A stretch of 64,000 bases of DNA. Source: Bacillota bacterium (GTDB lineage: Bacteria; Bacillota; TC1). The translations under genes were made by a program, and so were the position numbers. Below, piece after piece: positions 1 to 54,111 of this stretch (positions are counted from its first letter, which is position 1; every line of letters begins with the position of its first letter). A model generated the notes under the pieces. That model was not told the DNA's origin. It was given only the letters and a program-made list of their open reading frames with translations, and did not search any database. The stretch is taken from positions 1-64,000 of the forward strand of contig JAQUGR010000002.1 of assembly GCA_028683955.1 (NCBI GenBank), written 5' to 3'.

Positions 1-28
1 TTAAAAAGACTGGATTTAATCCAGTCTT
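1..28 (-). terminator. Intrinsic terminator of topB
   Basis: Perfect inverted repeat AAGACTGGATT / AATCCAGTCTT (6-16 and 18-28, one-base loop) followed on the minus strand by TTTTT. The first stem arm overlaps the TAA stop of the topoisomerase gene by two bases, so the gene ends inside its own terminator. Confidence 0.85.
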
Positions 29-2072
29 ACTTAAAGGAAAACTCCAATCTCATCAATTCTTTGTTATATACAAGATAACCATCAAACTTCTTACCCTCAT
101 GATTGACAAAACCCTTGATAAAACCAGTCTTACCCTTAGTTATTAAAGTCTTAAGCTGATTGGCCGTCAGGTTCTTCTTGCCCACCTTCTTTAAAATAGC
201 ATACTTACAACCATCCCGATAACCAGAACAATAATATTTCATCTCTCCAATCAAGACAGGCTTTCCGCAAACAGGACAAATATACTCGGATCTATTTTTC
301 TCAACCCCAGTAAACCTGATTTCATTTCTATTACCCTTTAAAGTCTCCAACATATCCAAACACATACTATTAATATCATCAAGAAAACTATTGAAAATAT
401 TCTTATCCTTAATAATCCCATCAAGCCTATACTCTAAATCAGCAGTATAACCAACATCAAGCAGCTTAGAATTCTCAGACTGTAATATTTCAATAATCTG
501 CTTACCCTTATCTGTAATAATAATAGCCTTCTTCTGATCTGTAATATACTCTCTCTTATATAAAGTCTCAATAATAGCACCACGAGTAGCACCAGTACCA
601 ATACCCTTAATTTCCTTTAGTTTTTCTTTAATCTCACCCTCTTCTTCGTTATGAATATTCTTCATCTTCTCCAAAAGAGTAGCCTGCGTAAACAAAGGCT
701 TAGGTTTACTTTCAATTTCTTTTATTTCATACTCTAGTTCATATTCCCCATCAGCAATAATATCCTTATAAGTATGACTAGTATCCTTATAGGTCTTAAG
801 ATAACCTAAATCAATAAGCTCCTTTTCTGAACCCTTTAATACATTCTTATCATCAATAATACCCTCATACTTAATACTACGATACTGATAATCATCACAA
901 TAATTGGCCAAGAAAATAGCCACCACAAGATTGTAAATATTACTCTCCTGTTCAGATAAACCCTGAGGAATGATACCAGTAGGAGTAATACCCTCGTGAG
1001 CCTCTACCTCGCCGATAACCTGCTCATTTATCTTCTTACTAGTAATATGCTCATATCCCTTAAACTTACTAAAATTATCAATCCTGGAATTCAACTTATC
1101 TGCAGTATTTTGAGTAATAAAATTACAATCAGTCCTAGGATAGGAAACAGCCTTATATTTCTCATACAAACTCTGAACAATACTCAAAGTACTATCAGCC
1201 TTATAACTCCAAAAATTATTAGCCAACTTTTGAACATCCAAGATAGTAGGCAACTTTGGAGGAGATTTCTTTTTATCTTCTTTAGTAGAAACTATGTTTA
1301 AAGTCTTAGGCAGACCTAATAACTTCTCTTCAGCTTCATTTCTTTTAGCAACCCTATATTTATCAAGTTCCAATTCAATATCAGTACCCACCACTTTAGC
1401 CTTAATTCCATAATCAATCTTCTTTTGATGTCCTGCATTTTCTTTACAACGATCATATATAAGTTTAAGAGTTGGTGTTTGCACTCTTCCTACAGATAAA
1501 ACACCCCCGCCTCTATACTTACAAGAATAAGCTCTAGTCATATTAAGACCTATAATATAGTCAGACAATGCTCTGCCATAAGCTGACATTTTTAAACCTT
1601 CATAATTTTCACCCAATTCTAAATTGGTGAACTGTTCCTTTATCCCATCCGGAGTTAAATCCTTTATAATCAATCTTTTTACAGGTTTATTAACCTTAAA
1701 ATATGAATAAATATTTTGAAATATTAACTCACCTTCTCTATCAGGGTCAGTTGCATTAATCAGACTCTCAATATCGTCCCTCTTTAATATTCCTTCTATT
1801 GCCTTCAATTGGCTAGTAGTATTAGCATTAGGTTTATAGTTACCAATAATATTTTGTTCATCTATTCTAATAGGCAAATTTGCCAAATTCCACTTTTGAT
1901 ATTTTTGATCAATTTCACCTGGTTCTTTTAATTGAAGTAGATGGCCAACAGCCCAAGTTATTATATACTTATCCCCTTCAAGATAACCATCTTTTCTCAT
2001 AGTTCTATTTTCAATAGCCCCGGCTATATCTCTACCTTGACTTGGTTTTTCTGCAATTATTAGTGTTTTCAT
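27..2072 (-). CDS. topB: DNA topoisomerase III (type IA)
   Basis: This 681-residue protein is a type IA topoisomerase that cleaves and rejoins one DNA strand to relax or decatenate DNA in the cytoplasm. The N-terminal TOPRIM domain shows IIAEKPSQ with Glu8 and the metal-binding DPDREGE at about 109-115. The VGRVQTPTL segment near 195-202 and the catalytic tyrosine in SYPRTD (Tyr311) follow. The C-terminus carries one zinc ribbon (CPVCGKP ... YYCSGYRDGC, about 596-618) that fits TopB rather than TopA. Length is usual for TopB. An AAAGGGAG ribosome site precedes the ATG. It is a single-gene unit with its own terminator. Confidence 0.95.
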   Translation of the reverse strand: MKTLIIAEKPSQGRDIAGAIENRTMRKDGYLEGDKYIITWAVGHLLQLKEPGEIDQKYQKWNLANLPIRIDEQNIIGNYKPNANTTSQLKAIEGILKRDDIESLINATDPDREGELIFQNIYSYFKVNKPVKRLIIKDLTPDGIKEQFTNLELGENYEGLKMSAYGRALSDYIIGLNMTRAYSCKYRGGGVLSVGRVQTPTLKLIYDRCKENAGHQKKIDYGIKAKVVGTDIELELDKYRVAKRNEAEEKLLGLPKTLNIVSTKEDKKKSPPKLPTILDVQKLANNFWSYKADSTLSIVQSLYEKYKAVSYPRTDCNFITQNTADKLNSRIDNFSKFKGYEHITSKKINEQVIGEVEAHEGITPTGIIPQGLSEQESNIYNLVVAIFLANYCDDYQYRSIKYEGIIDDKNVLKGSEKELIDLGYLKTYKDTSHTYKDIIADGEYELEYEIKEIESKPKPLFTQATLLEKMKNIHNEEEGEIKEKLKEIKGIGTGATRGAIIETLYKREYITDQKKAIIITDKGKQIIEILQSENSKLLDVGYTADLEYRLDGIIKDKNIFNSFLDDINSMCLDMLETLKGNRNEIRFTGVEKNRSEYICPVCGKPVLIGEMKYYCSGYRDGCKYAILKKVGKKNLTANQLKTLITKGKTGFIKGFVNHEGKKFDGYLVYNKELMRLEFSFK

Positions 2073-2183
2073 TAATTATATAACTCCCTTTATTAAAAGC
2101 TTTATCTCTTATAAAATTACTTACTTACAAGTTTAACAAATTTTCCGGATTTTTTCATATATAAATTAATATTTATAAGTAAA

Positions 2184-2215
2184 AAAGCAACTAGTAATGG
2201 TTGCCTAGTTGCTTT
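2184..2215 (-). terminator. Terminator downstream of the EF-Ts paralogue
   Basis: An 11-bp perfect stem AAAGCAACTAG / CTAGTTGCTTT (2184-2194 and 2205-2215, 10-base loop) is followed on the minus strand by TTTTTTAC. It lies about 80 bases past the EF-Ts stop. A weaker inverted repeat (about 2266-2297, one mismatch in 12) straddles the EF-Ts stop codon. The same stem arm recurs in a prophage terminator at 35331-35359. Confidence 0.8.
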
Positions 2216-2292
2216 AATATAGTTGGTATATAAATAAATCAGTCAATACCAAATACATTTTATCATTAATTCATGCATTTGAAAAGCATGTA

Positions 2293-3141
2293 TTAATCAA
2301 TAAACATATTTGTACCACAAGCACATTTTAATTTAGCTTCTTCTTTTTCATACCTATAGAACTTATCAATCAACTTAACTTTAGAAAGATTCTCATAATC
2401 CCTATTTAACATCTCTTTAACTGTTAAAGTCTCATCTTTAATATATGCTTGATCCATAAGACAATTTTCCTTATAGAACTTTTCAATTTTACCAATTAAT
2501 ATCTTATCTAAAACCTTCTGTGGTTTTTTTGAAATAACCTCATCACTCTTCAAACTATCAAGAAATTCATTTTTAATAACTTCCATTTCCGGTGCAGAAA
2601 TATCTTCTCTTGAAATATATCTTGGAGCTGAAGCAATTATCTGCATAGCTAAATCCTTACTCAATAAGTCACTATCCATCTTAACTTCTAAATTTAAAAG
2701 AACAGCATATTTACCATTACCATGCATATAGGCAAATGGAGCCAGGCCTTTTAAGCTATTATATCTTTTCAATTTAACATTCTCTCTAAATTTCATAACC
2801 ATTGCTCTAACCATATCATCAATCTTATCATCTTCACCTTTAGCGATTATTTTAGCAATATCTTTTACGCCCTCAAGAAATTCTGGACTTCTTGCCACAA
2901 AATCAGTTTCAGTACTTACCTCTAGGATAACACCTGTCTCTTCAAATACTTCAGCATAAACGATACCCTCTTCAGAATTTCTTTCTGCTTTCTTTTCTTG
3001 AATTTGTAAGCCTCTTTCTTCTAGTAAATTAAAGGCTACCTCCACTACTCCATTAGCTTTTTCCAATTCTTTTTTACAATCCATTATTCCAAAACCTGTT
3101 TTTTCTCTTAAATATTGAATATCTTTTATTTGTATTTTCAT
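2293..3141 (-). CDS. tsf: Translation elongation factor Ts, stand-alone paralogue
   Basis: EF-Ts recycles EF-Tu by expelling GDP. The 282-residue protein starts with the UBA-like signature LREKTGFGIMDCKKEL and has the nucleotide-exchange motif TDFVAR at about 79-84, followed by a recognisable dimerisation core. It ends in an unusual CACGT tail of unknown role. Canonical tsf sits next to rpsB (ribosomal protein S2); here it follows a PadR regulator by one base and shares its promoter, so this is probably a second, conditionally expressed copy (inference). An AAGGAAGG ribosome site lies inside the end of the regulator gene. Whether the genome has another tsf cannot be seen from this window. Confidence 0.9.
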   Translation of the reverse strand: MKIQIKDIQYLREKTGFGIMDCKKELEKANGVVEVAFNLLEERGLQIQEKKAERNSEEGIVYAEVFEETGVILEVSTETDFVARSPEFLEGVKDIAKIIAKGEDDKIDDMVRAMVMKFRENVKLKRYNSLKGLAPFAYMHGNGKYAVLLNLEVKMDSDLLSKDLAMQIIASAPRYISREDISAPEMEVIKNEFLDSLKSDEVISKKPQKVLDKILIGKIEKFYKENCLMDQAYIKDETLTVKEMLNRDYENLSKVKLIDKFYRYEKEEAKLKCACGTNMFID

Positions 3142-3142
3142 T

Positions 3143-3691
3143 TTATTTCCTTCCTTTTACTTCCATTCCTGCTTTTACTTTTTCTATCCATAACAACTCA
3201 TTTTCATATGTGTTTATTATATTTTCACTAATCATTGACCAAAGGTACTCTTCTTGCTTGTTCCTTCTCTTATCTAATCCTTGTCGTCTTTGCATTTCCT
3301 TTTCCATTAATAGTTTCATGCTTACAGATTCTTCATATTGAGATAAGATAGCCATTACATTATCAACCTTCAAATCTCCACTTAAGGCCATCTGAATCAA
3401 GAATTCCTTTTTAAATTCTGGAGGTTCTTTAGGTGATTCCATAATCCATTTGTTAAACTCTTCTATACCCGATGCAGTAATTGTATATATTTTTTTAGAA
3501 GGTGCTCCATCTTGATGTTTTACTTCATTTGTGACAAGTCCCTGATTTTGCAATGCTAAAAGTCCCTTATAGATTTGATTGTTATTACCAGACCAATACA
3601 TAAATGTTGTTTTCTGAATGATTTTTTTTAAATCATATCCTGTCATTGGTTTCCATTTTAATACTCCTAGTATTGTGAAATTGAAAGACAT
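3143..3691 (-). CDS. PadR family transcriptional regulator
   Basis: PadR proteins are winged-helix repressors, usually released by small molecules. The N-terminal part shows the typical ILGVLKWKPMTGYDLKKII start, the YKGLLALQNQGLV recognition region and a wing with KKIYTITASG; the C-terminal half is helical, as in the Vir_act_alpha_C dimerisation domain. The longest frame begins at 3736, but the ATG at 3689-3691 (protein starting MSFNFTIL, 182 residues) has an AAGGGAG site at the right distance and is preferred. A palindromic operator overlapping the promoter lies immediately upstream. It is the first gene of a two-gene operon with the EF-Ts paralogue, which it most likely controls together with itself. 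Confidence 0.88.
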   Translation of the reverse strand: MSFNFTILGVLKWKPMTGYDLKKIIQKTTFMYWSGNNNQIYKGLLALQNQGLVTNEVKHQDGAPSKKIYTITASGIEEFNKWIMESPKEPPEFKKEFLIQMALSGDLKVDNVMAILSQYEESVSMKLLMEKEMQRRQGLDKRRNKQEEYLWSMISENIINTYENELLWIEKVKAGMEVKGRK

Positions 3692-3710
3692 ATTAAACTT
3701 CTCCCTTGCT

Positions 3711-3755
3711 GTTTTAACATAGGTTAATGATAACATATGTTAAAACTATTATCAA
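3711..3755 (-). promoter_or_regulatory. Promoter and palindromic operator of the padR-tsf operon
   Basis: The minus strand reads TTGATA (3750-3755), 17 bases, TATCAT (3727-3732). An 11-bp perfect inverted repeat, GTTTTAACATA (3711-3721) and TATGTTAAAAC (3736-3746), covers the spacer and flanks the -10 box; a 12-bp palindrome TAACATATGTTA (3731-3742) sits within it. The position fits autorepression by the PadR protein, which is inference from layout. Confidence 0.7.
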
Positions 3756-3821
3756 CTTTTATTATTTAAATAATAGCTGTATAGTTAAAAATCCTATATA
3801 ATAAATAATGAGGTAGTTAAT

Positions 3822-4466
3822 ATGAAAATAAAATTAATTCTACGATATATAATCTTTCTAATAGGTATATTCATGATGGGCCTAGGAATTAGCATGACTG
3901 CTAAAACAGGACTTGGCACTACACCAATATCTAGTGTACCCCTTCTATTATCAAGAATCTTTCCACTTAGTTTTGGTACAATGGCTTTTTTATTAAGTCT
4001 TGTCTTTATTATAATAGAATGGCTTATTTTAAGGGAGGATTTCACCAAAGAGCATTATGCTCAGATAATTGTCACACCCTTCTTTGGTTATTTTATAGAT
4101 TTAGGAATGCTAATATTTAAAAATCTAAAACCTGAAACTTATCTTGATAATATTATAGTTTTACTTATTGCTTGTATTTTAATAAGTTTTGGAATATCCC
4201 TGCAAGTTATCGCCAGGGTTCTTATCAATTCTGCAGAAGGTCTAGTAAAGGTTATGGCAGACAAAACTAGATGTAAATTTGGAAATATTAAAATTTTATT
4301 TGATAGTAGTTTGATTTTAATAGCCTTGGTTATTTCCCTTTTGGCTTTTAGAAAAGTAAAGGATGTTAGGGAAGGTACTATAATAGTAGCAATAGCCCTA
4401 GGATCACTTACCAAAGTCTTTTTAAAATTCTTTGATTGGCTTGGTATAGATTGGCTTTATGAATAA
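3822..4466 (+). CDS. YczE/YyaS/YitT-type integral membrane protein
   Basis: A 214-residue membrane protein with about five hydrophobic segments (roughly 8-28, 47-68, 80-100, 110-132 and 155-176). The N-terminal pattern MGLGISMTAKTGLGTTPISSVP is typical of the YczE/YitT-like family of unknown function. It has a GAGG ribosome site and is transcribed divergently from the padR-tsf operon, sharing an 80-100 base intergenic region that also holds the PadR operator, so PadR might affect it too. It converges on the NagZ-like gene with only 28 bases between them and no clear terminator. Transport substrate or role cannot be named. Confidence 0.75.
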   Translation: MKIKLILRYIIFLIGIFMMGLGISMTAKTGLGTTPISSVPLLLSRIFPLSFGTMAFLLSLVFIIIEWLILREDFTKEHYAQIIVTPFFGYFIDLGMLIFKNLKPETYLDNIIVLLIACILISFGISLQVIARVLINSAEGLVKVMADKTRCKFGNIKILFDSSLILIALVISLLAFRKVKDVREGTIIVAIALGSLTKVFLKFFDWLGIDWLYE

Positions 4467-4494
4467 ATAATTAAATAAAAAAATATAATTATTA

Positions 4495-5745
4495 TTACCA
4501 GTCCAACATTTCTTTTTTAAGTTTTAAAATTCTAGTTACTGATTCATTTATTCGTTCCTGGCTTATTTCACCATTATTTACGGCTTCTAATAAACCATCA
4601 TATGCCTTCTCAAAGTTTGCAGGCATTAGTAGCAGGTCAACACCTGCATTTATTGCCTTAAAAGATGCTTCACTAGAACTAAACTTATTACTTATAGCAC
4701 CCATATTTAAAGCATCAGTAATAATAACTCCCTCAAAGCCTAATTCTTTTCTTAAAATACCTTGAATCATCACAGGAGAGAATGAACTTGGTGTACTATC
4801 ACCTATTACATTAGGAACGGAAATATGAGCCATCATAACTATTTGAGCACCTTCAGCTATGCCTTTTTCAAACGGTATAAACTCACAAGCTCTTAATTCC
4901 TCTATCGTCTTCTTAGTAAATACATAACCATCATGGCTATCATTGGTTGTATTCCCATGTCCTGGAAAATGCTTTAAAGTAGTAATAATTTGGTTATCCC
5001 TCAAGCCCTTAATTTCCTCAGCAACATAGTCTGCAACAATATTTGGATCTGATGAGAAAGCCCTATACTTTACTACAATATTTTCAGGATTTGTAAAAAC
5101 ATCGGCTATAGGAGCATAATTAAGATTAAATCCATAATCTTTTAGATATTTACCTATTGTATCCCCTAAAGTATATGCGTCCTGTGGAGTTTTTATTCCG
5201 TTTAAATTTCCAAATGATTTTACGTCAAAATTTTTATTACTTGCTAACCTAGAAACTGTGCCACCTTCTTCATCAATACTAATAAACATTGGTATACCAA
5301 TACTATCTATAGAGTACTCCTGGGTCTTGGAAATCATAGTTCTAATTTGATTTGGTGTTTCTATATTTTTAGAAAAATAGATTAAGCCTCCTACTGGATA
5401 CTTTTCTAAATTTTCTTGAGTGAATTTTGTTGCTGTTGTAATTTCTTCATCCTTACTTAAAGCTTCTGGTGTAATTATAAATAATTGAGCAACTTTTTCC
5501 TCTATTGTCATCTTGTTTAGAATTGCTTGTATTTCTGCCTCATTCCTCTTTTTTTCTGCCTCCACAATTAGGGCATAATCTATTGAATATATCTTATCTC
5601 TATTGGTGTATACCAATATTTTATTAAATATAAATAGTCCAAATAAAACTAAAATAATTCCACTAAATAATAAAATTATCTTTTTTTTAAATCTTTTATT
5701 CTTTAAGTTTTGTTTTTTTTGTTTTCTCACACTGTTTCCAATCAT
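4495..5745 (-). CDS. nagZ: Glycoside hydrolase family 3, NagZ-like beta-N-acetylhexosaminidase
   Basis: NagZ removes N-acetylglucosamine from muropeptides during cell-wall turnover. The 416-residue protein has a basic N-terminus, one membrane anchor (about 22-41), then the GH3 barrel: SIDEEGG near 157, NYAPIADV near 209, the signature KHFPGHGNTTNDSH at 258-271 with the Asp-His pair of the NagZ subgroup, and ITDALNMGAI near 340. The membrane segment suggests it works outside the cell, attached to the membrane, as in other Gram-positives. No strong ribosome site precedes the only plausible ATG. It stands alone, between the YczE-like gene and the terminator of the LacI operon. Confidence 0.88.
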   Translation of the reverse strand: MIGNSVRKQKKQNLKNKRFKKKIILLFSGIILVLFGLFIFNKILVYTNRDKIYSIDYALIVEAEKKRNEAEIQAILNKMTIEEKVAQLFIITPEALSKDEEITTATKFTQENLEKYPVGGLIYFSKNIETPNQIRTMISKTQEYSIDSIGIPMFISIDEEGGTVSRLASNKNFDVKSFGNLNGIKTPQDAYTLGDTIGKYLKDYGFNLNYAPIADVFTNPENIVVKYRAFSSDPNIVADYVAEEIKGLRDNQIITTLKHFPGHGNTTNDSHDGYVFTKKTIEELRACEFIPFEKGIAEGAQIVMMAHISVPNVIGDSTPSSFSPVMIQGILRKELGFEGVIITDALNMGAISNKFSSSEASFKAINAGVDLLLMPANFEKAYDGLLEAVNNGEISQERINESVTRILKLKKEMLDW

Positions 5746-5787
5746 ATATTCTTATTTATAAATATAATTATATCATAATAGAAAAAA

Positions 5788-5814
5788 ACCCTTAAAGCAT
5801 TATACTTTAAGGGT
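5788..5814 (-). terminator. Terminator of the molybdenum hydroxylase-LacI operon
   Basis: The stem ACCCTTAAAG / CTTTAAGGGT (10 bp, 5788-5797 and 5805-5814) is followed on the minus strand by seven T. It ends the operon finishing with the LacI gene. An almost identical stem ends the GGDEF gene at 9642-9672. Confidence 0.85.
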
Positions 5815-5836
5815 CATATCATTAATCTATTTATAA

Positions 5837-6844
5837 TCAGCAAGATTCTCTAATTTTTAAAGTTGGTGAAAATAAAACTTTTTGTATGGGAATATCCTTA
5901 TTATCTATCCTGTCTAGTAATATTTGAGCTGCGGTCTTGCCGATTTCTTCTCCAGGAAAATTAATTGTAGTAATTCCAGGATGATAATAATTAGCCATAG
6001 GTATATTATCACAACTAATTACCGCCAAATCCTCAGGAATTTTATAATTATTTTCTAATAAGTATTTCATGACCCCTATAGCAAGTAAGTCATTAAATGC
6101 AAAAATAACTGTAGGTTTAGGATTTAAAGTTAATAAGCTTTTTACAACATTATATCCACTTTCTATAGAATCATATACTCCATACACTATATTTTCTTCA
6201 TTTATTTTAATTCCTAACTTTTCACTATTTATGAATAATTCCTTTAATCTACGTTTTGTAACGTTGTAATCTTCATTACCGGCTATTACACCAATATTAT
6301 GATGTCCTTTTTTCTGTAAATATTGTAAGGTCAATAATATACTTATTCCTTCATCAATGTATACAGTATCTAAGTGTTTATCTATTGCTCCTGTATCAAT
6401 AACTACTATTGGTGTGTTGCTTAATTTATCAAGAGATTTTTCATAACCTTCTTGAAGAGATGCTGAGCCAAATAGAATTAATCCATCCATAAAAAAATTA
6501 TTGCGGTTTTTATGGATCATATCTATTAAGCCTTCTTGTTTTTTCAGACTTTTTCTATTATTGAATAAGGTAATTATATAACCATATTTCTCTAATATTT
6601 CCTCTGCTCCTTTTGCTATATCAAAAATTATCGGATTAACATCATTAGGTATAATCATTATTATGTTTTTAGTTCTAACTTTTTTTAAATTTCTTGCAAA
6701 GGGGTTTATTTTATAATTATTCTCTTCCATTACTGTTTTAACTTTTATCAATGTTGATTCTTTTACTAATTCTGGATTATTTATCACCCTCGAAACAGTT
6801 GCAACAGAAACATTAGCTAGTTTTGCAATTTTATGAATATTCAT
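5837..6844 (-). CDS. LacI family transcriptional regulator
   Basis: A 335-residue LacI/GalR regulator: the helix-turn-helix IHKIAKLANVSVATVSRVIN at 3-22, the hinge helix NPFARNLKK near 47-56, then a periplasmic-binding-protein-like sensor domain (IIMIIPNDVNPIIF, a TPIVVIDTG segment, GHHNIGVIAG, FAFNDLLAIGVMKYL, CDNIPMANYYHPGITTI). It is the last gene of the operon: its ATG lies inside the end of the molybdopterin subunit gene (14-base overlap), with AAAGGAAAT as ribosome site, so translation is coupled. The ligand is unknown; context suggests the substrate or product of the hydroxylase, such as a purine or N-heterocycle. Confidence 0.92.
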   Translation of the reverse strand: MNIHKIAKLANVSVATVSRVINNPELVKESTLIKVKTVMEENNYKINPFARNLKKVRTKNIIMIIPNDVNPIIFDIAKGAEEILEKYGYIITLFNNRKSLKKQEGLIDMIHKNRNNFFMDGLILFGSASLQEGYEKSLDKLSNTPIVVIDTGAIDKHLDTVYIDEGISILLTLQYLQKKGHHNIGVIAGNEDYNVTKRRLKELFINSEKLGIKINEENIVYGVYDSIESGYNVVKSLLTLNPKPTVIFAFNDLLAIGVMKYLLENNYKIPEDLAVISCDNIPMANYYHPGITTINFPGEEIGKTAAQILLDRIDNKDIPIQKVLFSPTLKIRESC

Positions 6845-9086
6845 TCTTTATTTCCTTTAATATTTTATTAGAAGTTATTGGTAGATCAAGTAATTCACTA
6901 CCAAGAGCATCATTAATCGCATTTACAATAGCTGGAGCAACTGGTACAGTTGCAATTTCACCAATTCCTTTAGCCCCAAAAGGACCGCCAATTTCATTTT
7001 CTTCTATAAGTTTAATTTTAATATTTGGCATATCTTTAGCTTTTGGCATTTTATATTTTTTTAGATTTGCATTTGTAACTCTTCCAGTCTCTTTATCTAT
7101 CAAAATTTCTTCAGAAAGGGCATAGCCTAAGCCCATTTGAATGCCTCCTTCTATTTGACCTTCCAATAACATTGGATTTATAGCTCTACCAACATCACAA
7201 ACTGCTAGGTAATCAACAACTTTAATTTCACCCGTTTGTGTATCAACAATAACCTTGGCAAAGTGTGCACCATATGATCCAACATTTGTTTTAGAGTTAT
7301 AACTATTAGATATTAACATTTTTCTATGTTTATTAATAAAAATATAATGAACTAAACTTTCTCTTGTTATATAACTACTTTCATTATTTTTATTTATAAA
7401 TTTTCCATCTTTTAGATTAATATTTGCAGGTATTGTTTCTAAGACTTCTGCAGCATAAGTAATAAGTTCATTTTTCAACTTATTACATGTTTCAACTATA
7501 GCATTTCCACCCACCCAAGTATTTCTACTGGCAAGTGCCCCTAGATCATAAGGTGTATTTTGGGTATTGGATTCTACAATAGTTATAAGTTCTGGGCTGA
7601 TATCTAAAATTTCTGAAGCCATTTGTTTTAGAATTGTATATGTACCTGCACCTGGGTCACATATACCTAGTGATAATACTGCACTTCCATCTTCTAGAAT
7701 TTGAATCGTGATACCTGCTATATCAGGGAAAAAAGGTACTGATCCATTACCATGGGCTGCAACCGCAAAGCCATATCCAATTTTATATCTATTTTCATTA
7801 TTTTTATTCAAATCACTCTTATAATTTGTCATTTTAAATAATCTATCACCTTCATTTATGCAATCGATTATTCTACAATTACCTAAAGATAAATTTGTTA
7901 GTGGATTTATATCGTAAGGCTTAAATAAATTGTTCTGATAAAGAAGGATTGGATTGATATTTATAGATCTTGCAATTTTAAACATATGTGTTTCGATTGC
8001 TGCAAATATTTGTGGAGCTCCATAACCCCTCATTGCTCCCCCACTTGGTGTATTAGTATATATATTATGACCTATGAATTTAATATTAGGAATATTATAA
8101 ATCATAAAAACTTTTGAACACATTCCTGCTAATACTGTAACTGTATTACTACAATAAGCACCAGCATCTAAAAAAACTTCAATCTCCATCGATTTTATAA
8201 AACCCTTTTTACTGACTATACTAGAGATATTAATTTCTGTAGCGTGTCTTGTACTTGTTGAAACAATTGTTTCTTTTCTATCTAATCGAATTCTCACGGG
8301 TCTTTTTGTTATTTTTGAGAGTAATACAGCAATAGGTTCTAATATTACACCACGTTTTCCTCCAAATGTTCCACCTATTTTGGGTTTAATAACCTGTATC
8401 TTATTAAATGAAAGATTAAATATTTTACCTAATAATAATTGTGTGCTAAATACACCTTGATTTGGTGTCCATACACTTATTTTATTATCCATTGACCAAA
8501 ATGCTGTACATAGATATGTTTCTAATGCACCATGATGTACTTTAGGAGTTTTAATTGTACTTTTCACTTGCATTTCATCTTTATTAATTATACTTTGTGA
8601 AGTTCCAACTTCTTCTATAATATCACTAATCAAATTCCCCTCAGGATGTATTTTATAAGAATTATCATTTATTGCTTCCTTCATATCATATATAGCAGGA
8701 AGTATTTCATATTCAACTTTAATTAAACTAATTGCTTTGGTGGCAATTTCTAAACTTATTGCCGCAACAGCTGCTACTTTATCACCAACAAATCTTACAA
8801 CAGAATCAAAGACCATCTCTGTTTTTGGAGAATCATCATCAATACTTATCATGGCACTATTAAACTTAACTTTAGGACTATTTAAATATGTAACTACAGC
8901 TTCAACGCCTTCTAATGATTCTGCTGCACTTGTATCAATACTAATTATTTTAGCATGAGCTACAGTACTAAAAAGAATTTTACCATATAACATATTTGGT
9001 AAATTAATGTCATCAGTATATAAAGCTGAACCAGTTACTTTTTCAACTGCATCAAATTCAGGATAAGACTTTCCAACGTATTCCAT
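6831..9086 (-). CDS. Xanthine dehydrogenase family, molybdopterin-binding subunit
   Basis: This 751-residue subunit of a molybdenum hydroxylase carries the Mo cofactor and hydroxylates a carbon of an N-heterocycle or aldehyde with water-derived oxygen. The N-terminus (KVTGSALYTDDI) is the a/b hammerhead domain, GGTFGGKRG near 235 is the cofactor motif, MRGYGAPQ follows near 350, and the C-terminal GPFGAKGIGE contains the catalytic glutamate. It starts one base after the [2Fe-2S] subunit and overlaps the LacI gene. No FAD subunit gene lies nearby, so the enzyme is either a two-subunit type or uses a partner from elsewhere. The substrate cannot be decided from sequence. Confidence 0.9.
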   Translation of the reverse strand: MEYVGKSYPEFDAVEKVTGSALYTDDINLPNMLYGKILFSTVAHAKIISIDTSAAESLEGVEAVVTYLNSPKVKFNSAMISIDDDSPKTEMVFDSVVRFVGDKVAAVAAISLEIATKAISLIKVEYEILPAIYDMKEAINDNSYKIHPEGNLISDIIEEVGTSQSIINKDEMQVKSTIKTPKVHHGALETYLCTAFWSMDNKISVWTPNQGVFSTQLLLGKIFNLSFNKIQVIKPKIGGTFGGKRGVILEPIAVLLSKITKRPVRIRLDRKETIVSTSTRHATEINISSIVSKKGFIKSMEIEVFLDAGAYCSNTVTVLAGMCSKVFMIYNIPNIKFIGHNIYTNTPSGGAMRGYGAPQIFAAIETHMFKIARSININPILLYQNNLFKPYDINPLTNLSLGNCRIIDCINEGDRLFKMTNYKSDLNKNNENRYKIGYGFAVAAHGNGSVPFFPDIAGITIQILEDGSAVLSLGICDPGAGTYTILKQMASEILDISPELITIVESNTQNTPYDLGALASRNTWVGGNAIVETCNKLKNELITYAAEVLETIPANINLKDGKFINKNNESSYITRESLVHYIFINKHRKMLISNSYNSKTNVGSYGAHFAKVIVDTQTGEIKVVDYLAVCDVGRAINPMLLEGQIEGGIQMGLGYALSEEILIDKETGRVTNANLKKYKMPKAKDMPNIKIKLIEENEIGGPFGAKGIGEIATVPVAPAIVNAINDALGSELLDLPITSNKILKEIKNEYS

Positions 9087-9087
9087 T

Positions 9088-9558
9088 TTATTCTCCTTTC
9101 ATTTTCAAACTTGCTAATTCAATAGCTTCAATAATTTTTATGTAACCTGTGCATCTACAAATATTGTTATCTAATGCATCAAGAATTTCTTTTCTTGTAG
9201 GCTGTTTATTATTTGAAAGTAAAGCCACTGAGGTTATAACCATTCCTGGTGTACAAAAGCCACATTGTATAGCTCCTGCCTCAATAAAAGCTTTTTGAAC
9301 AGGATGTAATTCTTCACCATTACTTAAGCCTTCTATCGTTATTATGTTACTATTTTCCACATTCTTTGCCAAAATAGTGCATGAGTTTTTTGCAACTCCA
9401 TCTATTAACACTTTACATGCACCACAATCACCTGTTCCACAACCGAATTTAGTACCTGTTAAATTTAAAACATCTCTTAAAACGTATAATAATGTCCATT
9501 TATCCTCTATCGCTATTTTATAGTTTCTGCCATTTATTTTTAAACTAATTTCTTTCAT
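9088..9558 (-). CDS. Xanthine dehydrogenase family, [2Fe-2S] subunit
   Basis: A small iron-sulfur subunit that passes electrons from the Mo site. It has the plant-ferredoxin-type cluster motif GCGTGDCGACKVLIDG (about 38-53) plus a later Cys, then the helical four-Cys cluster domain CGFCTPGMV and ICRCTGY. Length of about 156 is typical for XdhC/CoxS/HcrC-type subunits. The frame is open to a GTG at 9570, but the ATG at 9556-9558 has GGAGGG four bases upstream and is preferred. It is first in the operon, directly behind a strong promoter with a palindromic operator. Confidence 0.92.
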   Translation of the reverse strand: MKEISLKINGRNYKIAIEDKWTLLYVLRDVLNLTGTKFGCGTGDCGACKVLIDGVAKNSCTILAKNVENSNIITIEGLSNGEELHPVQKAFIEAGAIQCGFCTPGMVITSVALLSNNKQPTRKEILDALDNNICRCTGYIKIIEAIELASLKMKGE

Positions 9559-9578
9559 AACACCCTCCACTTCTATTC

Positions 9579-23249: not shown

Positions 23250-23618
23250 CTACCTTTTCGATACAGGAATTAATTTAACTTTGAAAGACTTGTATAATCC
23301 CCTGTTTTTAAATAACATATCAATATCAAAATTATCTGGATAATATTGTGCAGTATGTGTATTATTTATAAGCACATCAAACCATTCAACAGATAAGTAA
23401 GGTTGGTCTAGTAATTGAATAAGAGTAGTAATCTGATCTTGAGTGCATACATTTATTTCGATTTCTATTTCCGGATAAATACCTATTAATGTTGCTCTCA
23501 TATCTCCAGCCATATTAGTTTCTGTATCTCTCCATTTTTTTATTCTATTTACCTTATAACCAATAATACTATCAATTACATTGCCATTTATTTTTAATAA
23601 ATCTCCTGTAAATGTCAT
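23250..23618 (-). CDS. Small tail protein, DUF6711-like
   Basis: A 122-residue protein starting MTFTGDLLKINGNVIDSIIGYKVNRIKKW and ending KSFKVKLIPVSKR. Its length, position between tape measure and hub, and the SVEWFDVLINN segment are like small distal-tail-type proteins of Firmicute phages annotated DUF6711. The start overlaps the tape measure stop by four bases, so translation is coupled. Confidence 0.6.
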   Translation of the reverse strand: MTFTGDLLKINGNVIDSIIGYKVNRIKKWRDTETNMAGDMRATLIGIYPEIEIEINVCTQDQITTLIQLLDQPYLSVEWFDVLINNTHTAQYYPDNFDIDMLFKNRGLYKSFKVKLIPVSKR

Positions 23619-26005
23619 ACCTTAATCACCGCCTCATTATTCACGAAAGATTTGTTTTCAAAACCTTTTATCATTTTATCAATTAGATTATCTTCACCAA
23701 TATTAACAACTAATCTCAATGAACTATTACCACCATTATTAGCAACGACAACTTTATCCCTTGTGCTTGTATTCTTTGCATTCATGGTAGACATATTATT
23801 ACTATATTGATCTATCATTCTTTTTGATAAGTCATGAGGAATAACTTGTGTTCCATTTGGCAGATTAACTAACTCACCTCTACCTTGTTCATTAATCCAA
23901 GCAGGACCACCACCCCAATTATCGGTACCATGTGCTAGATATGGGAATGATTTAATATTAACTCCTGCAAATCCAAGAGCACTATTCAACTTGCTAATAA
24001 CACTATTTACTGGTCTAATAATATAATCGTTTATTAATCCCTTAACCTTGTTTATAGCAGTTCCAATTGCACTACTTATAGCACCTGCAATACCACCAAA
24101 AAAGCCTTTAATTTTATCAACTATTCCTTGAACAGTATCTTTTAACTTATTGAATAAGCTAATTCCAGTATCAATTGCTCCTTTAATAGCACCTGATATG
24201 GCACTCCCCACTGCTGAAAATGCACTTTTGACCTTTTCTACTACTGGAGAAACATAATTTACCCACAGACTTGTAAAAAACCCTGCTATTGCATCTATTT
24301 TAGGTTTAAGAAAACCCCAAATTTGTTCACCGAGCCATTTAAAAGCAAACACAATTAAATTAATAATACTAGTTACTACTGACCACCAGAACTGGAAGTA
24401 TCCGACAATGATATCTATCGCTACACCTACAACTGCCATAATTATGCCACCAACAAACTTGAATATATTTACTACAAATCCTATAACAGTTGATACTACC
24501 GCCCACCATATTTTAAAATACGTTGATATAATATCTATAGCTACACCAATTACAGTCATAATAATATTGCCAAGCCATTTAAAGAATCCTGCTATTGCAT
24601 CAACAATGGCCATAACACCATCTCTAAACCAATCACAGTTATTCCAAAGCCATAAGATACCTGCAACTATTGCTGCAATTGCTAATACTATAAGGATTAC
24701 AGGAAAAGCAGCCATTGCTGCATTCAATGCCCATTGTGCCGCTGCCGCTCCGAAAGTTACCCCAGAACCAGCAGCTATTTCAGTAGTTAAAAAACCATAA
24801 ATAGGTATTAAAGTTGATATAAAACCTAGAATTGGACCAATAGCAATACCCAATGCAATAAACGCAATGGCGACACCCTGACCAACTGGTCCTAGTTTTC
24901 CAAACCAATCTGCTAATTTCCCAATTTTATCAGCTAATTTACCAACTGCAGGTGCTACAACATCAGCTAGTTTTATACCTGCATTGGTTATTTTAGCCAT
25001 AGTCTGTTGAATTTTAGCTGTATTAGTACTATTCATCTTGTCAAAAGCCTCTTTAGTAGCTCCTGCTGAATCTCCCATTTTACCTAAGAATTCATTATAT
25101 GTGCCTACATCCCCAGCAATAGTCATTGCCGCTTTACCTGCTTCAATACTTCCAAACATTGTAGGCATACTTTGTCCATTGGCCTTAGCATAATCATCCA
25201 TAATTTTTAATACATCACCAACAGATTTTCCTTCAGACATTAACTGTCCAAATGATTTCCCTGTAAGTTCTAATATTTTAGATCCTGCAATGCTCGTTGT
25301 ATCACCTAATTCATTTAACATGGCATTAATTGAAGTAGTTGATTGTGCGGTATCAATACCTTTTGCAGTCATTAGTGCATATGATGCACCTAATTGTTCT
25401 ATATTAACTCCATAAGCTTTTGCAGTAGGAATAACATTACCCATTGATTTAGATAATTCATCAACTGTAGTTTTACCTAAATTTTGGGTTGTTATCAGTA
25501 CATCTGAAATTCTTTTGCTATCCTTAGCCTCTAATCCATACGCATTAATAGCAGAAGTCATTACATTAACAGCTGATGCTGTATCAGTAAATCCACCCTT
25601 AGATAATTGAATTGCCTGTGTCATGAAATCTGTTGTATCCTTCATATCATTAGTAACGGGCAATCCAGCAGACAAAGCTTCGTAATAACCTCCGGCAATT
25701 TCATTTGCTGCAATACCTGTTTGATCAGATAAACCCATTATGGATTTTTTAAGATTATTTGTATCTACTTCAATACCGCCATATAGTGTTGATATCTTAG
25801 CCATTGAGTCACTGAATTGGTTTGATGTATTAATAGCTACACCACTCGCTGCAATTAATGGTACACTTAGACCTATTGTTGCCATTGTTCCTGCTTTACC
25901 TAGTGATTTTTGAGTGCCTTCTAGTTTACTATTAGCAGTTGCAAGATTCTTTTCAAAATCTTTTATATCTGCTCCTACTATTGCTTTTATAAGAAAGTTT
26001 GACAT
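23615..26005 (-). CDS. Phage tail tape measure protein (TP901-type)
   Basis: A 796-residue tape measure protein that sets tail length and helps DNA entry. The N-terminal 340 residues hold the TP901 core domain (SDSMAKISTLYGG, AANEIAGGYYEALSAG, TTQNLGKTTVDELSKSMG, TAKAYGVNIEQLGASYALMT). Hydrophobic stretches follow (about 370-460 and 465-560, with WWAVVSTVIGFVVNIFKF), then a glycine-rich amphipathic part. The C-terminal AHGTDNWGGGPAWINEQGRGE is the usual tape measure end motif. Its start overlaps the chaperone T stop. Confidence 0.95.
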   Translation of the reverse strand: MSNFLIKAIVGADIKDFEKNLATANSKLEGTQKSLGKAGTMATIGLSVPLIAASGVAINTSNQFSDSMAKISTLYGGIEVDTNNLKKSIMGLSDQTGIAANEIAGGYYEALSAGLPVTNDMKDTTDFMTQAIQLSKGGFTDTASAVNVMTSAINAYGLEAKDSKRISDVLITTQNLGKTTVDELSKSMGNVIPTAKAYGVNIEQLGASYALMTAKGIDTAQSTTSINAMLNELGDTTSIAGSKILELTGKSFGQLMSEGKSVGDVLKIMDDYAKANGQSMPTMFGSIEAGKAAMTIAGDVGTYNEFLGKMGDSAGATKEAFDKMNSTNTAKIQQTMAKITNAGIKLADVVAPAVGKLADKIGKLADWFGKLGPVGQGVAIAFIALGIAIGPILGFISTLIPIYGFLTTEIAAGSGVTFGAAAAQWALNAAMAAFPVILIVLAIAAIVAGILWLWNNCDWFRDGVMAIVDAIAGFFKWLGNIIMTVIGVAIDIISTYFKIWWAVVSTVIGFVVNIFKFVGGIIMAVVGVAIDIIVGYFQFWWSVVTSIINLIVFAFKWLGEQIWGFLKPKIDAIAGFFTSLWVNYVSPVVEKVKSAFSAVGSAISGAIKGAIDTGISLFNKLKDTVQGIVDKIKGFFGGIAGAISSAIGTAINKVKGLINDYIIRPVNSVISKLNSALGFAGVNIKSFPYLAHGTDNWGGGPAWINEQGRGELVNLPNGTQVIPHDLSKRMIDQYSNNMSTMNAKNTSTRDKVVVANNGGNSSLRLVVNIGEDNLIDKMIKGFENKSFVNNEAVIKV

Positions 26006-51711: not shown

Positions 51712-54006
51712 TTATTTGTTTAAAGTTTCTAAAACTCTTTGAGGTGTTAAAGGAATAGAATTAATCTCCAAACCAATAGCATTAGCCACCGCATTCCTTA
51801 TAGCTGGAGCAGGAGCACTAAGAGGAGGTTCACCCAAAGATTTATTACCAAATGGACCAGTCGGATCTATAGGCTCTACAAATGCAACCTTTAAATCAGG
51901 TACATCCATACAAGTAGGCATCTTATAATCCAGCAAGTTATTATTTAATGGCTTACCATTATTGTAATCATACAGTAACTCCTCACCAAGACCATAAGCA
52001 ATACCCATAGCCATACCACCTTCAACCTGACCAGAAGCTAACATCGGATTAATAATCTTACCAGCATCATGAACGTTCATAATATCTAGAATCTCAACTT
52101 TTCCAGTCTTAGTATCAACCTCAACATAAGCTAAACAAGCAGTCCCAGAATAAGCTGTAGTCTGACAATTGATAGAAACATCTGCAGTCAAACAATTACC
52201 CTTATGAAAATCATAATAAGTTTTTAAAGCTAAATCACCTAGTGACTCTAATTTCTTACCTGTTTTCTTAAAGACAACATAACCATCAACTAAATCCAAA
52301 TCAATCTCACTATAAAGTGGAGTAAAAAGAATATAAGCCTCAAGAATCTTGACCTTTAATACCTCAGCCGCTTTTTTTACAGCCATACCAGACACATAAG
52401 TCTGCCTAGAGGCAAAAGAACCAGGATCAAATGGAGATACATCAGTATCAGTATATTTATCAACATAAACATTATCGTAACTTATACCAAGAACCTCAGC
52501 TGCCATCTGAGCCAAAACAGTATCAGAACCCTGACCTATTTCAGTAGCACCAATCATCATCTTAACACTACCATCCTGATTTAAAATCAACCTACAACCA
52601 GAACTTTCAATAGAAGGGGAATGAGGTTTAGTATTTGTGGCATAAATTAAAGTACCAACTCCTAGTCCTCTTTTTCTGTCACTATTATCTAAATTAAATT
52701 TTTTACAATCTTCATTTCTTTTAACCCAGTCAAAACTATCTCTACCAACTCTTAAACACTCAGAGAGTTCACTAGTAAAAAACATTACTTGTGTACCGTT
52801 ACACAGTTCACCTGATTTTGGAACATTTTTCATTTGAAATTCCAATTGATCAATTCCTAGTTCCCTGGCAGCTTTACCTGCAAGAGAATTAAGAGCAAAT
52901 GCAGCTTGAGGAGTTCCATAAGCTCTCATAGCTCCACCAACCGCTGTATTAGTATAAACAGTTCTAGAACGCGCTCTGAAATTTTCAACATTAAAAAGTT
53001 CCATAGCCGCTTCTTCACCTACTAGGGCAATTGTATGGCCATGAGATGTATAAGCACCATTTTGTGATAGAACATCCATATCAATCCCAGTTATATGATA
53101 ATTTTCATCAATAGCAATTTTCATCTTATAGTCATTTGCATGTCTTACTCTACTACAAACAAATAACTCCTCACGAGTCATTTCTAAAACAACAGGTTTA
53201 CCATCAACTGCCATGGACATTGCCATTACTAATGGTTCAATTACAATATCTTGTTTATTACCAAAACCACCACCAACAAAAGGCTTAATAACTCTAAATC
53301 TGCCAAAAGGCATATTAAAAGCATCACCTAGTATATGACGACAGATATGAGGTATTTGAGTTGATGATATACAAACCCATCTATTATCAACATCCTTATA
53401 AGCATAGGCTACCATAGTTTCCAAATGACAATGTTGAACTGTTTGAGTATGATATTCATCCTCAAAAACATATTTTGCTTCTTTGAAAGCTTTATCTACA
53501 TCACCATATTCATTAGTTGTATCTGCAACCAAGTTTCCTGAACCGTCATGAATTTCTTTTGCGCCGGGCTGTAAAGCATCAGTAGAATTTAGATAAAAAG
53601 GCCACTGCTCATAATCAATTTTTATCTTATTAACAGCAATCTCTGCTGCCAGCTCAGTTTCCGCTATAACTGCACCTATTGCATCACCAAAATATCTAAC
53701 TCTTCTAGTGAATATATTCGTGTCTTTTTTATCCTGAAATTTTACATTAAGCTTATGTGGATGACCAGCAGTTGAATATGTATGCTCTGGTACATCGTCA
53801 GCCGTTAAGATCTTAATAACTCCAGGTACTTTTAAGGCTTCTTCTAAATTGTAGTTAATAACTCGGCCATGAGCTATTTTGCTTCTAACTACTTTGCCAT
53901 ATAGAAGATTGTGCATAGGTATGTCCCTTGTATACTCAGCCTTTCCAGTAACTTTTGCTTCCGCATCCCATCTAGTCTGACTGGTTCCTACTACCTTAAA
54001 ATCCAT
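51712..54006 (-). CDS. Xanthine dehydrogenase family, molybdopterin-binding subunit (orphan)
   Basis: A 764-residue molybdenum hydroxylase large subunit: RWDAEAKVTGKAEYTRDI (hammerhead domain), GGGFGNKQDIV near 250, GGAMRAYGTPQ near 365, and the C-terminal GPFGNKSLGEPP with the catalytic Glu. The frame extends 57 bases upstream, but the ATG at 54004-54006 has GGGAGGTG in place. Unlike the set at 6831-9558, no iron-sulfur or FAD subunit adjoins it, so it must use subunits coded elsewhere or be unassembled. It differs clearly in sequence from the other large subunit; substrate unknown. Confidence 0.9.
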   Translation of the reverse strand: MDFKVVGTSQTRWDAEAKVTGKAEYTRDIPMHNLLYGKVVRSKIAHGRVINYNLEEALKVPGVIKILTADDVPEHTYSTAGHPHKLNVKFQDKKDTNIFTRRVRYFGDAIGAVIAETELAAEIAVNKIKIDYEQWPFYLNSTDALQPGAKEIHDGSGNLVADTTNEYGDVDKAFKEAKYVFEDEYHTQTVQHCHLETMVAYAYKDVDNRWVCISSTQIPHICRHILGDAFNMPFGRFRVIKPFVGGGFGNKQDIVIEPLVMAMSMAVDGKPVVLEMTREELFVCSRVRHANDYKMKIAIDENYHITGIDMDVLSQNGAYTSHGHTIALVGEEAAMELFNVENFRARSRTVYTNTAVGGAMRAYGTPQAAFALNSLAGKAARELGIDQLEFQMKNVPKSGELCNGTQVMFFTSELSECLRVGRDSFDWVKRNEDCKKFNLDNSDRKRGLGVGTLIYATNTKPHSPSIESSGCRLILNQDGSVKMMIGATEIGQGSDTVLAQMAAEVLGISYDNVYVDKYTDTDVSPFDPGSFASRQTYVSGMAVKKAAEVLKVKILEAYILFTPLYSEIDLDLVDGYVVFKKTGKKLESLGDLALKTYYDFHKGNCLTADVSINCQTTAYSGTACLAYVEVDTKTGKVEILDIMNVHDAGKIINPMLASGQVEGGMAMGIAYGLGEELLYDYNNGKPLNNNLLDYKMPTCMDVPDLKVAFVEPIDPTGPFGNKSLGEPPLSAPAPAIRNAVANAIGLEINSIPLTPQRVLETLNK

Positions 54007-54111
54007 TTGACACCTCCCATATTTATTATCTCTTAGAATACCACCAAAACATGCTTTTTTCAACTAATATAAACTAATTAGTATGATTTAATACCAGCAC
54101 AAGATAAAATT

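What the first reader, a model, noticed from the sequence alone, without database searches (positions are those of the whole stretch)
2293..3755. EF-Ts paralogue in a PadR-controlled operon
An elongation factor Ts gene is not beside rpsB but one base behind a PadR regulator, with a palindromic operator (11-bp arms) overlapping a good promoter. PadR regulators answer to small toxic molecules. An inducible EF-Ts that rejuvenates EF-Tu could protect against drugs or toxins that trap EF-Tu, such as elfamycins, or serve stress translation. The CACGT tail is also unusual.
Basis: partly seen in the sequence, partly recalled or inferred. Interest (0 to 1): 0.55.

Follow-up and report, generated by a model that had tools for sequence, protein, structure and literature searches.

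The report
Second EF-Ts under PadR control
A few anaerobic bacteria carry, besides their normal copy, a spare version of a core protein-synthesis helper (EF-Ts) directly behind a chemical-sensor-type switch gene, and the same pairing turns up in a distant relative, which suggests a spare translation factor kept off until some signal, not yet identified, calls for it.

Summary
Window 2293-3141(-) is a second EF-Ts (tsf2); the usual rpsB-tsf-pyrH operon is elsewhere in the genome. It lies one base behind padR, whose start is probably 3691, so the palindrome (core 3715-3739, over the -10 box) is upstream of the coding region. tsf2 is at this locus in 4 of 5 genomes of the genus; one of the four lacks padR and has a decayed operator. 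Among 398 phylum genomes, tsf2-grade scores occur only there and in a distant genome, G038, again behind a PadR of this subfamily with the same operator. The operator also precedes the 12 other subfamily PadRs found, 7 of them beside a hydrolase, and occurs once in the window's genome. tsf2 is a long-type EF-Ts under weaker but real purifying selection; the EF-Tu-contact motif is kept, the C-terminal end is replaced by a KCxCxxNMFI tail. tsf2 has one origin in the trees; the PadR tree neither shows nor rejects joint descent. Best reading: an auto-repressed, inducible alternative exchange factor, favoured to be of foreign origin. The elfamycin/toxin role is untested.

The parts
2293..3141 (-). 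tsf2: long-type EF-Ts paralogue, 282 aa; keeps the N-terminal domain, ETDFV motif and two-subdomain core
2296..2328 (-). C-terminal tail KCACGTNMFID where canonical EF-Ts has a longer C-terminal end; KCxCxxNMFI invariant in 4 of 4 genus orthologues; low confidence (disordered) in the model
3143..3691 (-). padR, 182 aa from the likely start at 3691 (ORF opens at 3736); autorepressor by inference
3711..3746 (-). operator: inverted repeat, 16-nt arms 3711-3726 and 3731-3746; core CATATGTTATCATTAACCTATGTTA at 3715-3739, containing ATGT-N8-ACCT
3727..3755 (-). predicted promoter TTGATA (3755-3750), 17-nt spacer, TATCAT (3732-3727); operator covers the -10 box
2185..2206 (-). terminator-like stem-loop with T run after tsf2 (7 pairs); one such site is about what shuffles give (mean 0.8)
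3822..4466 (+). divergent neighbour, DUF6198/YczE-like membrane protein; next to the tsf2 locus in all four genus genomes that have tsf2, not seen beside it in G038; control by PadR unknown

Best explanation
padR-tsf2 is an auto-repressed two-gene operon. PadR binds a two-half-site operator over the -10 box and keeps both genes off; a small molecule or other stress signal releases it (inferred). EF-Ts2 is then made as a second guanine-nucleotide exchange factor that acts on the cell's ordinary EF-Tu beside the short housekeeping EF-Ts (inferred from the kept fold and contact motif), probably to keep EF-Tu cycling in a condition in which the normal factor does not suffice. tsf2 was probably acquired from outside, likely together with its regulator, though the second point is not shown. 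The same regulator-operator set elsewhere drives other cargo, often an alpha/beta hydrolase. Shown: paralogy, operon layout, operator conservation, purifying selection. Inferred: repression, ligand, exchange activity, benefit, joint transfer.
For: Second tsf beside an intact rpsB-tsf-pyrH. Same locus order YczE<>padR>tsf2>topB in G001, G004 and the window; G003 lacks padR and has an extra reverse gene before topB. G038, a distant family with its own rpsB-tsf-pyrH, has padR overlapping tsf2 by 4 bp. tsf2 profile: 5 of 398 genomes at 429-519 bits, next 256 bits; 25 of 25 next-best loci fetched are rpsB-linked. tsf2 of both lineages form one clade, support 99-100. The operator consensus made from the 4 tsf2-linked sites fits 12 of 12 other subfamily PadR loci with 0-3 mismatches; in 26 genomes it lies beside padR in 16 of 16 carriers and turns up in 1 of 10 non-carriers (3 mismatches; the reversed pattern hit once) (one search held). 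G003, without padR, has the site decayed to 5 mismatches at the old promoter place. dN/dS of tsf2 0.16-0.30. AlphaFold2 model pLDDT 85.8; the 20 PDB matches at E<=0.001 are all EF-Ts or complexes holding it, query TM-score 0.76-0.80 for the best eight.
Against: No expression, binding or exchange data. dN/dS is about five times that of the canonical tsf (0.02-0.06; dS is near saturation), so a weakened or changed task is possible. padR is dispensable in G003. The PadR tree does not put the G000-group and G038 PadRs together (0% of 200 bootstrap trees; the window's PadR is closer by BLAST to all 12 hydrolase/DUF4180-type PadRs than to G038's), though holding them together costs only 1.7 log units (p-AU 0.39): the pair may have been put together twice. 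Local duplication as origin of tsf2 is not rejected (p-AU 0.218). tsf2 and the G038 rows are long branches, flagged by the tree tool. Only two lineages are known. The C-terminal end is gone (G038's canonical EF-Ts also ends early).
Confidence: 0.57

Rival explanations
1. Inducible protection against an EF-Tu-directed drug or toxin: PadR senses the compound (or its class) and EF-Ts2 frees or competes for trapped EF-Tu. A sub-case of the best explanation.
For: The PadR protein LmrR works by multidrug binding and induction (PMC3506622, passages). Kin of this PadR often sit beside an alpha/beta hydrolase, as a detoxification operon would (7 of 12 by Pfam). PMC9529903 (passages) describes kirromycin as sharing enacyloxin's location, in a passage on the EF-Tu domain I/III cleft, and EF-Ts as docking through domains I and III.
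Against: No ligand known; no resistance gene, efflux pump or variant EF-Tu was seen in the stretch 1-6000 around it. PMC3506622 notes that two other PadR proteins lack a ligand pore. Hydrolase substrate unknown. The listings (titles and abstract starts only) showed no report of EF-Ts as a resistance factor.
Confidence: 0.2
2. EF-Ts2 is a brake or decoy: it holds EF-Tu in a slow complex, or replaces EF-Ts where an enemy exploits it.
For: Lost C-terminal end and fast change of the protein; CdiA-CT of E. coli EC869 needs EF-Tu/EF-Ts for tRNA cleavage (PMC9071432, start of abstract only).
Against: ETDFV and the core are conserved (4 of 4; ESDFV in G038); no PADLOC match; no relative in viral contigs.
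Confidence: 0.12
3. A redundant or decaying extra tsf, kept by chance and with no special role.
For: Faster evolution than canonical tsf, padR missing in G003, tsf2 absent from G002 (79% complete).
Against: Purifying selection (dN/dS 0.16-0.30), an invariant tail in the genus, and recurrence of padR-tsf2 with the same operator in a distant lineage.
Confidence: 0.13
4. tsf2 arose by duplication of the host's own tsf rather than by horizontal transfer (a rival on origin only, compatible with the functional reading).
For: AU test does not reject tsf2 plus the own short forms as one clade, p 0.218.
Against: Best trees place tsf2 with Ruminococcus/Pusillibacter-type long EF-Ts (support 99), 18.8 log units better; tsf2 has the second core subdomain that the own tsf lacks; joining G038's tsf2 to its own canonical kin is rejected, p 0.023. 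Long branches make all of this uncertain.
Confidence: 0.2
5. The pairing is not one inherited unit: the same kind of PadR cassette was recruited next to tsf2 separately in the two lineages.
For: G038's PadR does not group with the genus PadRs (0% of 200 bootstrap trees).
Against: Forcing them together costs only 1.7 log units, p-AU 0.39; G038's PadR is a very long branch (1.88). The tsf2 proteins do share one origin in the trees. Either way two recruitments would strengthen the case for a functional link.
Confidence: 0.35

Closest known systems
Canonical bacterial EF-Ts (tsf, TIGR00116), long E. coli type
   Same: Fold, N-terminal domain, TDFV motif, two-subdomain core
   Different: Not with rpsB; padR operon; shortened C-terminal end; CxC tail in the genus; second copy in the genome
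PadR autoregulated operons (padR-padC recalled; lmrR-lmrCD)
   Same: Regulator upstream of its target and an ATGT-N8-ACAT-like operator at the promoter (motif and lmrR-lmrCD layout from PMC5050560 and PMC3506622, passages)
   Different: Target is a translation factor rather than an enzyme or efflux pump; ligand unknown
PadR-DUF4180 / alpha-beta hydrolase loci found here in the same phylum
   Same: Same PadR subfamily (YWSGNNNQIYK) and same operator
   Different: 9 of 12 carry a fused DUF4180 domain, 7 of 12 a Pfam-confirmed hydrolase neighbour; none of the 12 loci (about 3.5 kb each) has an EF-Ts

Membership tests
EF-Ts (TIGR00116 / PF00889) | Scores above the curated cut-off | tested here: met
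   182.5 vs 104.05; 142.7 vs 27 bits
EF-Ts (TIGR00116 / PF00889) | TDFV motif that contacts EF-Tu domain I (motif from PMC9529903, passage) | tested here: met
   ETDFV in 4 of 4 genus members; ESDFV in G038
EF-Ts (TIGR00116 / PF00889) | EF-Ts fold | tested here: met
   AlphaFold2 pLDDT 85.8; the 20 PDB hits at E<=0.001 are EF-Ts or complexes with it
EF-Ts (TIGR00116 / PF00889) | C-terminal module (recalled; not universal) | tested here: not met
   Chain ends in a low-confidence tail; not family-defining, since G038's rpsB-linked EF-Ts also ends early
EF-Ts (TIGR00116 / PF00889) | Nucleotide exchange on EF-Tu | not testable with these tools
   Needs protein
PadR regulators (PF03551) | PadR winged-helix domain | tested here: met
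   49.8 bits, cut-off 27
PadR regulators (PF03551) | ATGT-N8-ACAT-type inverted repeat at its promoter | tested here: met
   ATGT-TATCATTA-ACCT here, one mismatch; exact ATGT-N8-ACAT in kin such as G354 and G041
PadR regulators (PF03551) | Ligand-relieved repression | not testable with these tools
   Needs footprint and reporter work
EF-Tu-inhibitor resistance determinants | Confers reduced sensitivity to an EF-Tu-binding compound | not testable with these tools
   No computational evidence for or against

The most novel reading that the evidence does not exclude
padR-tsf2 is a chemically induced 'spare exchange factor' cassette: a sensor that elsewhere switches on what looks like a detoxifying hydrolase here switches on a replacement EF-Ts that rescues EF-Tu from an inhibitor, a resistance principle (inducible protection of the target's cycle by a guanine-nucleotide exchange factor) that I do not know from the literature and that the listings did not show.
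Probability: 0.14. Interest if true: 0.85.

Novelty: new variant of a known kind. Interest (0 to 1): 0.6.

Why it matters
EF-Ts is usually seen as a housekeeping factor tied to rpsB (132 of 139 EF-Ts rows here are rpsB-linked). A second EF-Ts with what looks like its own dedicated repressor, recurring in a distant bacterium, makes the exchange step of EF-Tu a regulated and possibly tradable trait. It can be tested directly: the operator is defined to the base, occurs once in the genome, and the two EF-Ts forms can be compared side by side on one EF-Tu. The same operator gives a handle on the unknown ligand of a PadR subfamily found in 16 of 398 sampled genomes.

Tried and rejected
Phage or plasmid origin: tblastn hits in the phage collection (9 records) and plasmid collection (58 records, 20 listed) are all under 60% identity; the three plasmid hits opened (H10, H16, H17) were rpsB-linked canonical operons, and no phage hit was opened. 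Viral contigs gave no relative of tsf2 or padR. Second EF-Tu as partner: none seen, but tuf is cut at contig ends in the window genome, so this is weak. Defence system: no PADLOC match. Larger PadR regulon: one operator site in the genome at up to 3 mismatches, its two strands counted once. 'Shortened C-terminus is a tsf2 hallmark': dropped, because G038's canonical EF-Ts also ends early. Horizontal origin of tsf2 as proven: lowered to 'favoured' after the AU test. 'The pair moved as one unit' as shown: lowered to 'likely, not shown' after the PadR tree, and the confidence of the best explanation from 0.60 to 0.57 and of the novel case from 0.15 to 0.14 for that reason. Papers with both 'PadR' and 'elongation factor Ts': 5, titles and abstract starts seen, none evidently on such an operon; EF-Ts paralogue searches listed nothing relevant (20 of 140 listed, 20 of 69 listed, none). 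Only the open-licence library was searched.

Limits: the 398- and 391-genome samples are parts of larger groups. The match list, in which G038 was noticed, is cut, and many genomes there show 2-3 EF-Ts matches (mostly, I think, split short forms); I did not resolve them one by one, so EF-Ts paralogues of other kinds may exist. The operator pattern was relaxed after seeing the 12 sites, so the independent test is (consensus from 4, tried on 12). In one search G004 has one further 3-mismatch site away from padR. The structure model covers residues 2-282 because the range given left out the start codon. Tree rows were filtered to 195-400 aa and at least 100 bits and de-duplicated (139 rows); 58 were hand-picked. 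PadR kin above E 1e-30 were not looked at. dS for tsf2 is about 1 or more, so the ratios are rough.

Full report
What is there. Reading the minus strand, the window holds a predicted promoter (TTGATA-17-TATCAT, 3755-3727), an inverted repeat over its -10 box (3711-3746), padR (likely start 3691, end 3143), then after one base an EF-Ts gene (3141-2293) and a terminator-like hairpin (2206-2185, about chance level). Pfam and NCBIfam confirm EF-Ts, and Pfam confirms PadR, above cut-off. The genome has another EF-Ts gene in the standard rpsB-tsf-pyrH operon on another contig.

The paralogue does not look like a recent copy. The housekeeping EF-Ts is short (215 aa, lacking the second core subdomain); tsf2 is long (282 aa). 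In a tree of 139 EF-Ts rows tsf2 lies inside a group of long EF-Ts of Ruminococcus/Pusillibacter type (support 99), far from the own short form. A 58-row tree agrees (support 99); tying tsf2 to the own short forms costs 18.8 log units but is not rejected (p-AU 0.218), while tying G038's tsf2 to its own canonical kin is rejected (p 0.023). Horizontal transfer is favoured, not proven; the tool flags tsf2 rows as long branches.

Conservation. tsf2 is at the same place (YczE<>padR>tsf2>topB) in G001 and G004; G003 has tsf2 there without padR and with an extra reverse gene before topB; G002 (79% complete), G005 of the same family and G006-G009 of the order have none. Orthologues share 58-75% identity against 89-98% for canonical tsf of the same four genomes. 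dN/dS is 0.16-0.30 for tsf2 and 0.02-0.06 for tsf: constrained, but less so.

The distant case. In a screen of 299 phylum genomes with the EF-Ts family (list cut), G038 showed two long EF-Ts genes. One is in rpsB-tsf-pyrH; the other overlaps by four bases a PadR gene 43% identical to the window's. A profile from the five tsf2 proteins, run on 398 phylum genomes, scored those five at 429-519 bits and nothing else above 256; the 25 next-best loci fetched are all rpsB-linked. None of 391 genomes of G336's class reached E 1e-78, though no known positive lay in that sample.

The operator. The four padR-tsf2 promoters share CATATGTTAYNATTAACCTATGWTA without mismatch. A PadR profile found this subfamily in 16 of 398 genomes at E<=1e-30; the 12 not in the tsf2 set all have the element upstream of padR with 0-3 mismatches. 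It contains ATGT-N8-ACMT, the motif reported for PadR proteins (PMC5050560 and PMC3506622, passages). A scan of 26 genomes found it beside padR in 16 of 16 carriers and in 1 of 10 non-carriers (3 mismatches); G004 has one further 3-mismatch site; the reversed pattern hit once (places held). In the window's genome it occurs only here. In G003, without padR, a 5-mismatch remnant stands in front of tsf2. This is good evidence that the element is PadR's operator and that PadR is dedicated to this locus; repression itself is inferred from the overlap with the -10 box and from PadR practice.

Kin of the regulator, and a result against my first reading. In 9 of the 12 other loci PadR carries a fused DUF4180 domain; in 7 a neighbouring alpha/beta hydrolase was confirmed by Pfam, and an eighth (L171) looks like a split homologue without a Pfam match; none has an EF-Ts. 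One paper in the library names DUF4180 (listing only). By BLAST the window's PadR is closer to all 12 of these (164-195 bits) than to G038's PadR (145 bits), and in a 16-row tree the two tsf2-linked PadR groups do not come together (0% of 200 bootstrap trees), although forcing them together costs only 1.7 log units (p-AU 0.39) and G038's PadR is a very long branch. So joint descent of the pair is open: tsf2 has one origin in the trees, the pairing may have one or two. Two independent pairings would themselves argue for a functional link.

The protein. [quoted passage not shown] a model (pLDDT 85.8) matches solved EF-Ts best, query TM-score 0.76-0.80 for the best eight. It ends in KCxCxxNMFI; that CxC is in 4 of 139 EF-Ts rows, all from this genus, and absent from G038's tsf2. 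Its use is unknown; redox or metal sensing is a guess.

Mechanism. Shown: layout, operator, one tsf2 clade, selection. Inferred: PadR represses, a signal relieves it, EF-Ts2 exchanges nucleotide on EF-Tu. I put the general reading at 0.57 and the drug or toxin version at 0.2.

Noticed in passing
L187:1495-3138 (G336): In G336 a YczE/DUF6198 gene follows the canonical rpsB-tsf directly, and YczE is also the divergent neighbour of padR-tsf2 in the window; G336's EF-Ts is among the closest canonical ones to tsf2 (231.6 bits, third). May hint at the donor, or be chance.
   Followed up: partly
L167-L178: A PadR subfamily with fused DUF4180 (9 of 12) and an alpha/beta hydrolase neighbour (7 of 12 by Pfam) shares the operator found here; function and ligand not described in what I saw.
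   Followed up: partly
L124:4757-4910 (G003): padR missing between yczE and tsf2, old operator decayed: a natural padR-minus case in which tsf2 should be uncontrolled; no strong promoter was found by the scan just upstream.
   Followed up: yes
G157, G183 and others: Some phylum genomes show 2-3 EF-Ts matches; mostly probably split short forms, but other EF-Ts paralogues cannot be excluded.
   Followed up: no
window 23615-26005: Phage tail tape measure protein (TIGR01760), so a prophage probably lies around here.
   Followed up: no
window 6831-9570 and 51712-54063: Two sets of xanthine-dehydrogenase-type molybdenum hydroxylase genes in one 64-kb window; a LacI-type regulator (5837-6844) overlaps the end of the first.
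   Followed up: no
G000 contigs C15, C2, C6 ends: EF-Tu genes are cut at contig ends, as expected of near-identical tuf copies; so the EF-Tu partner of EF-Ts2 could not be read whole.
   Followed up: no
G000:C7:80670-81704 (outside the window): A 631-aa EF-Tu-like GTPase with like-sized counterparts in G001, G003, G004 and G005, by length possibly SelB (guess, not tested).
   Followed up: no
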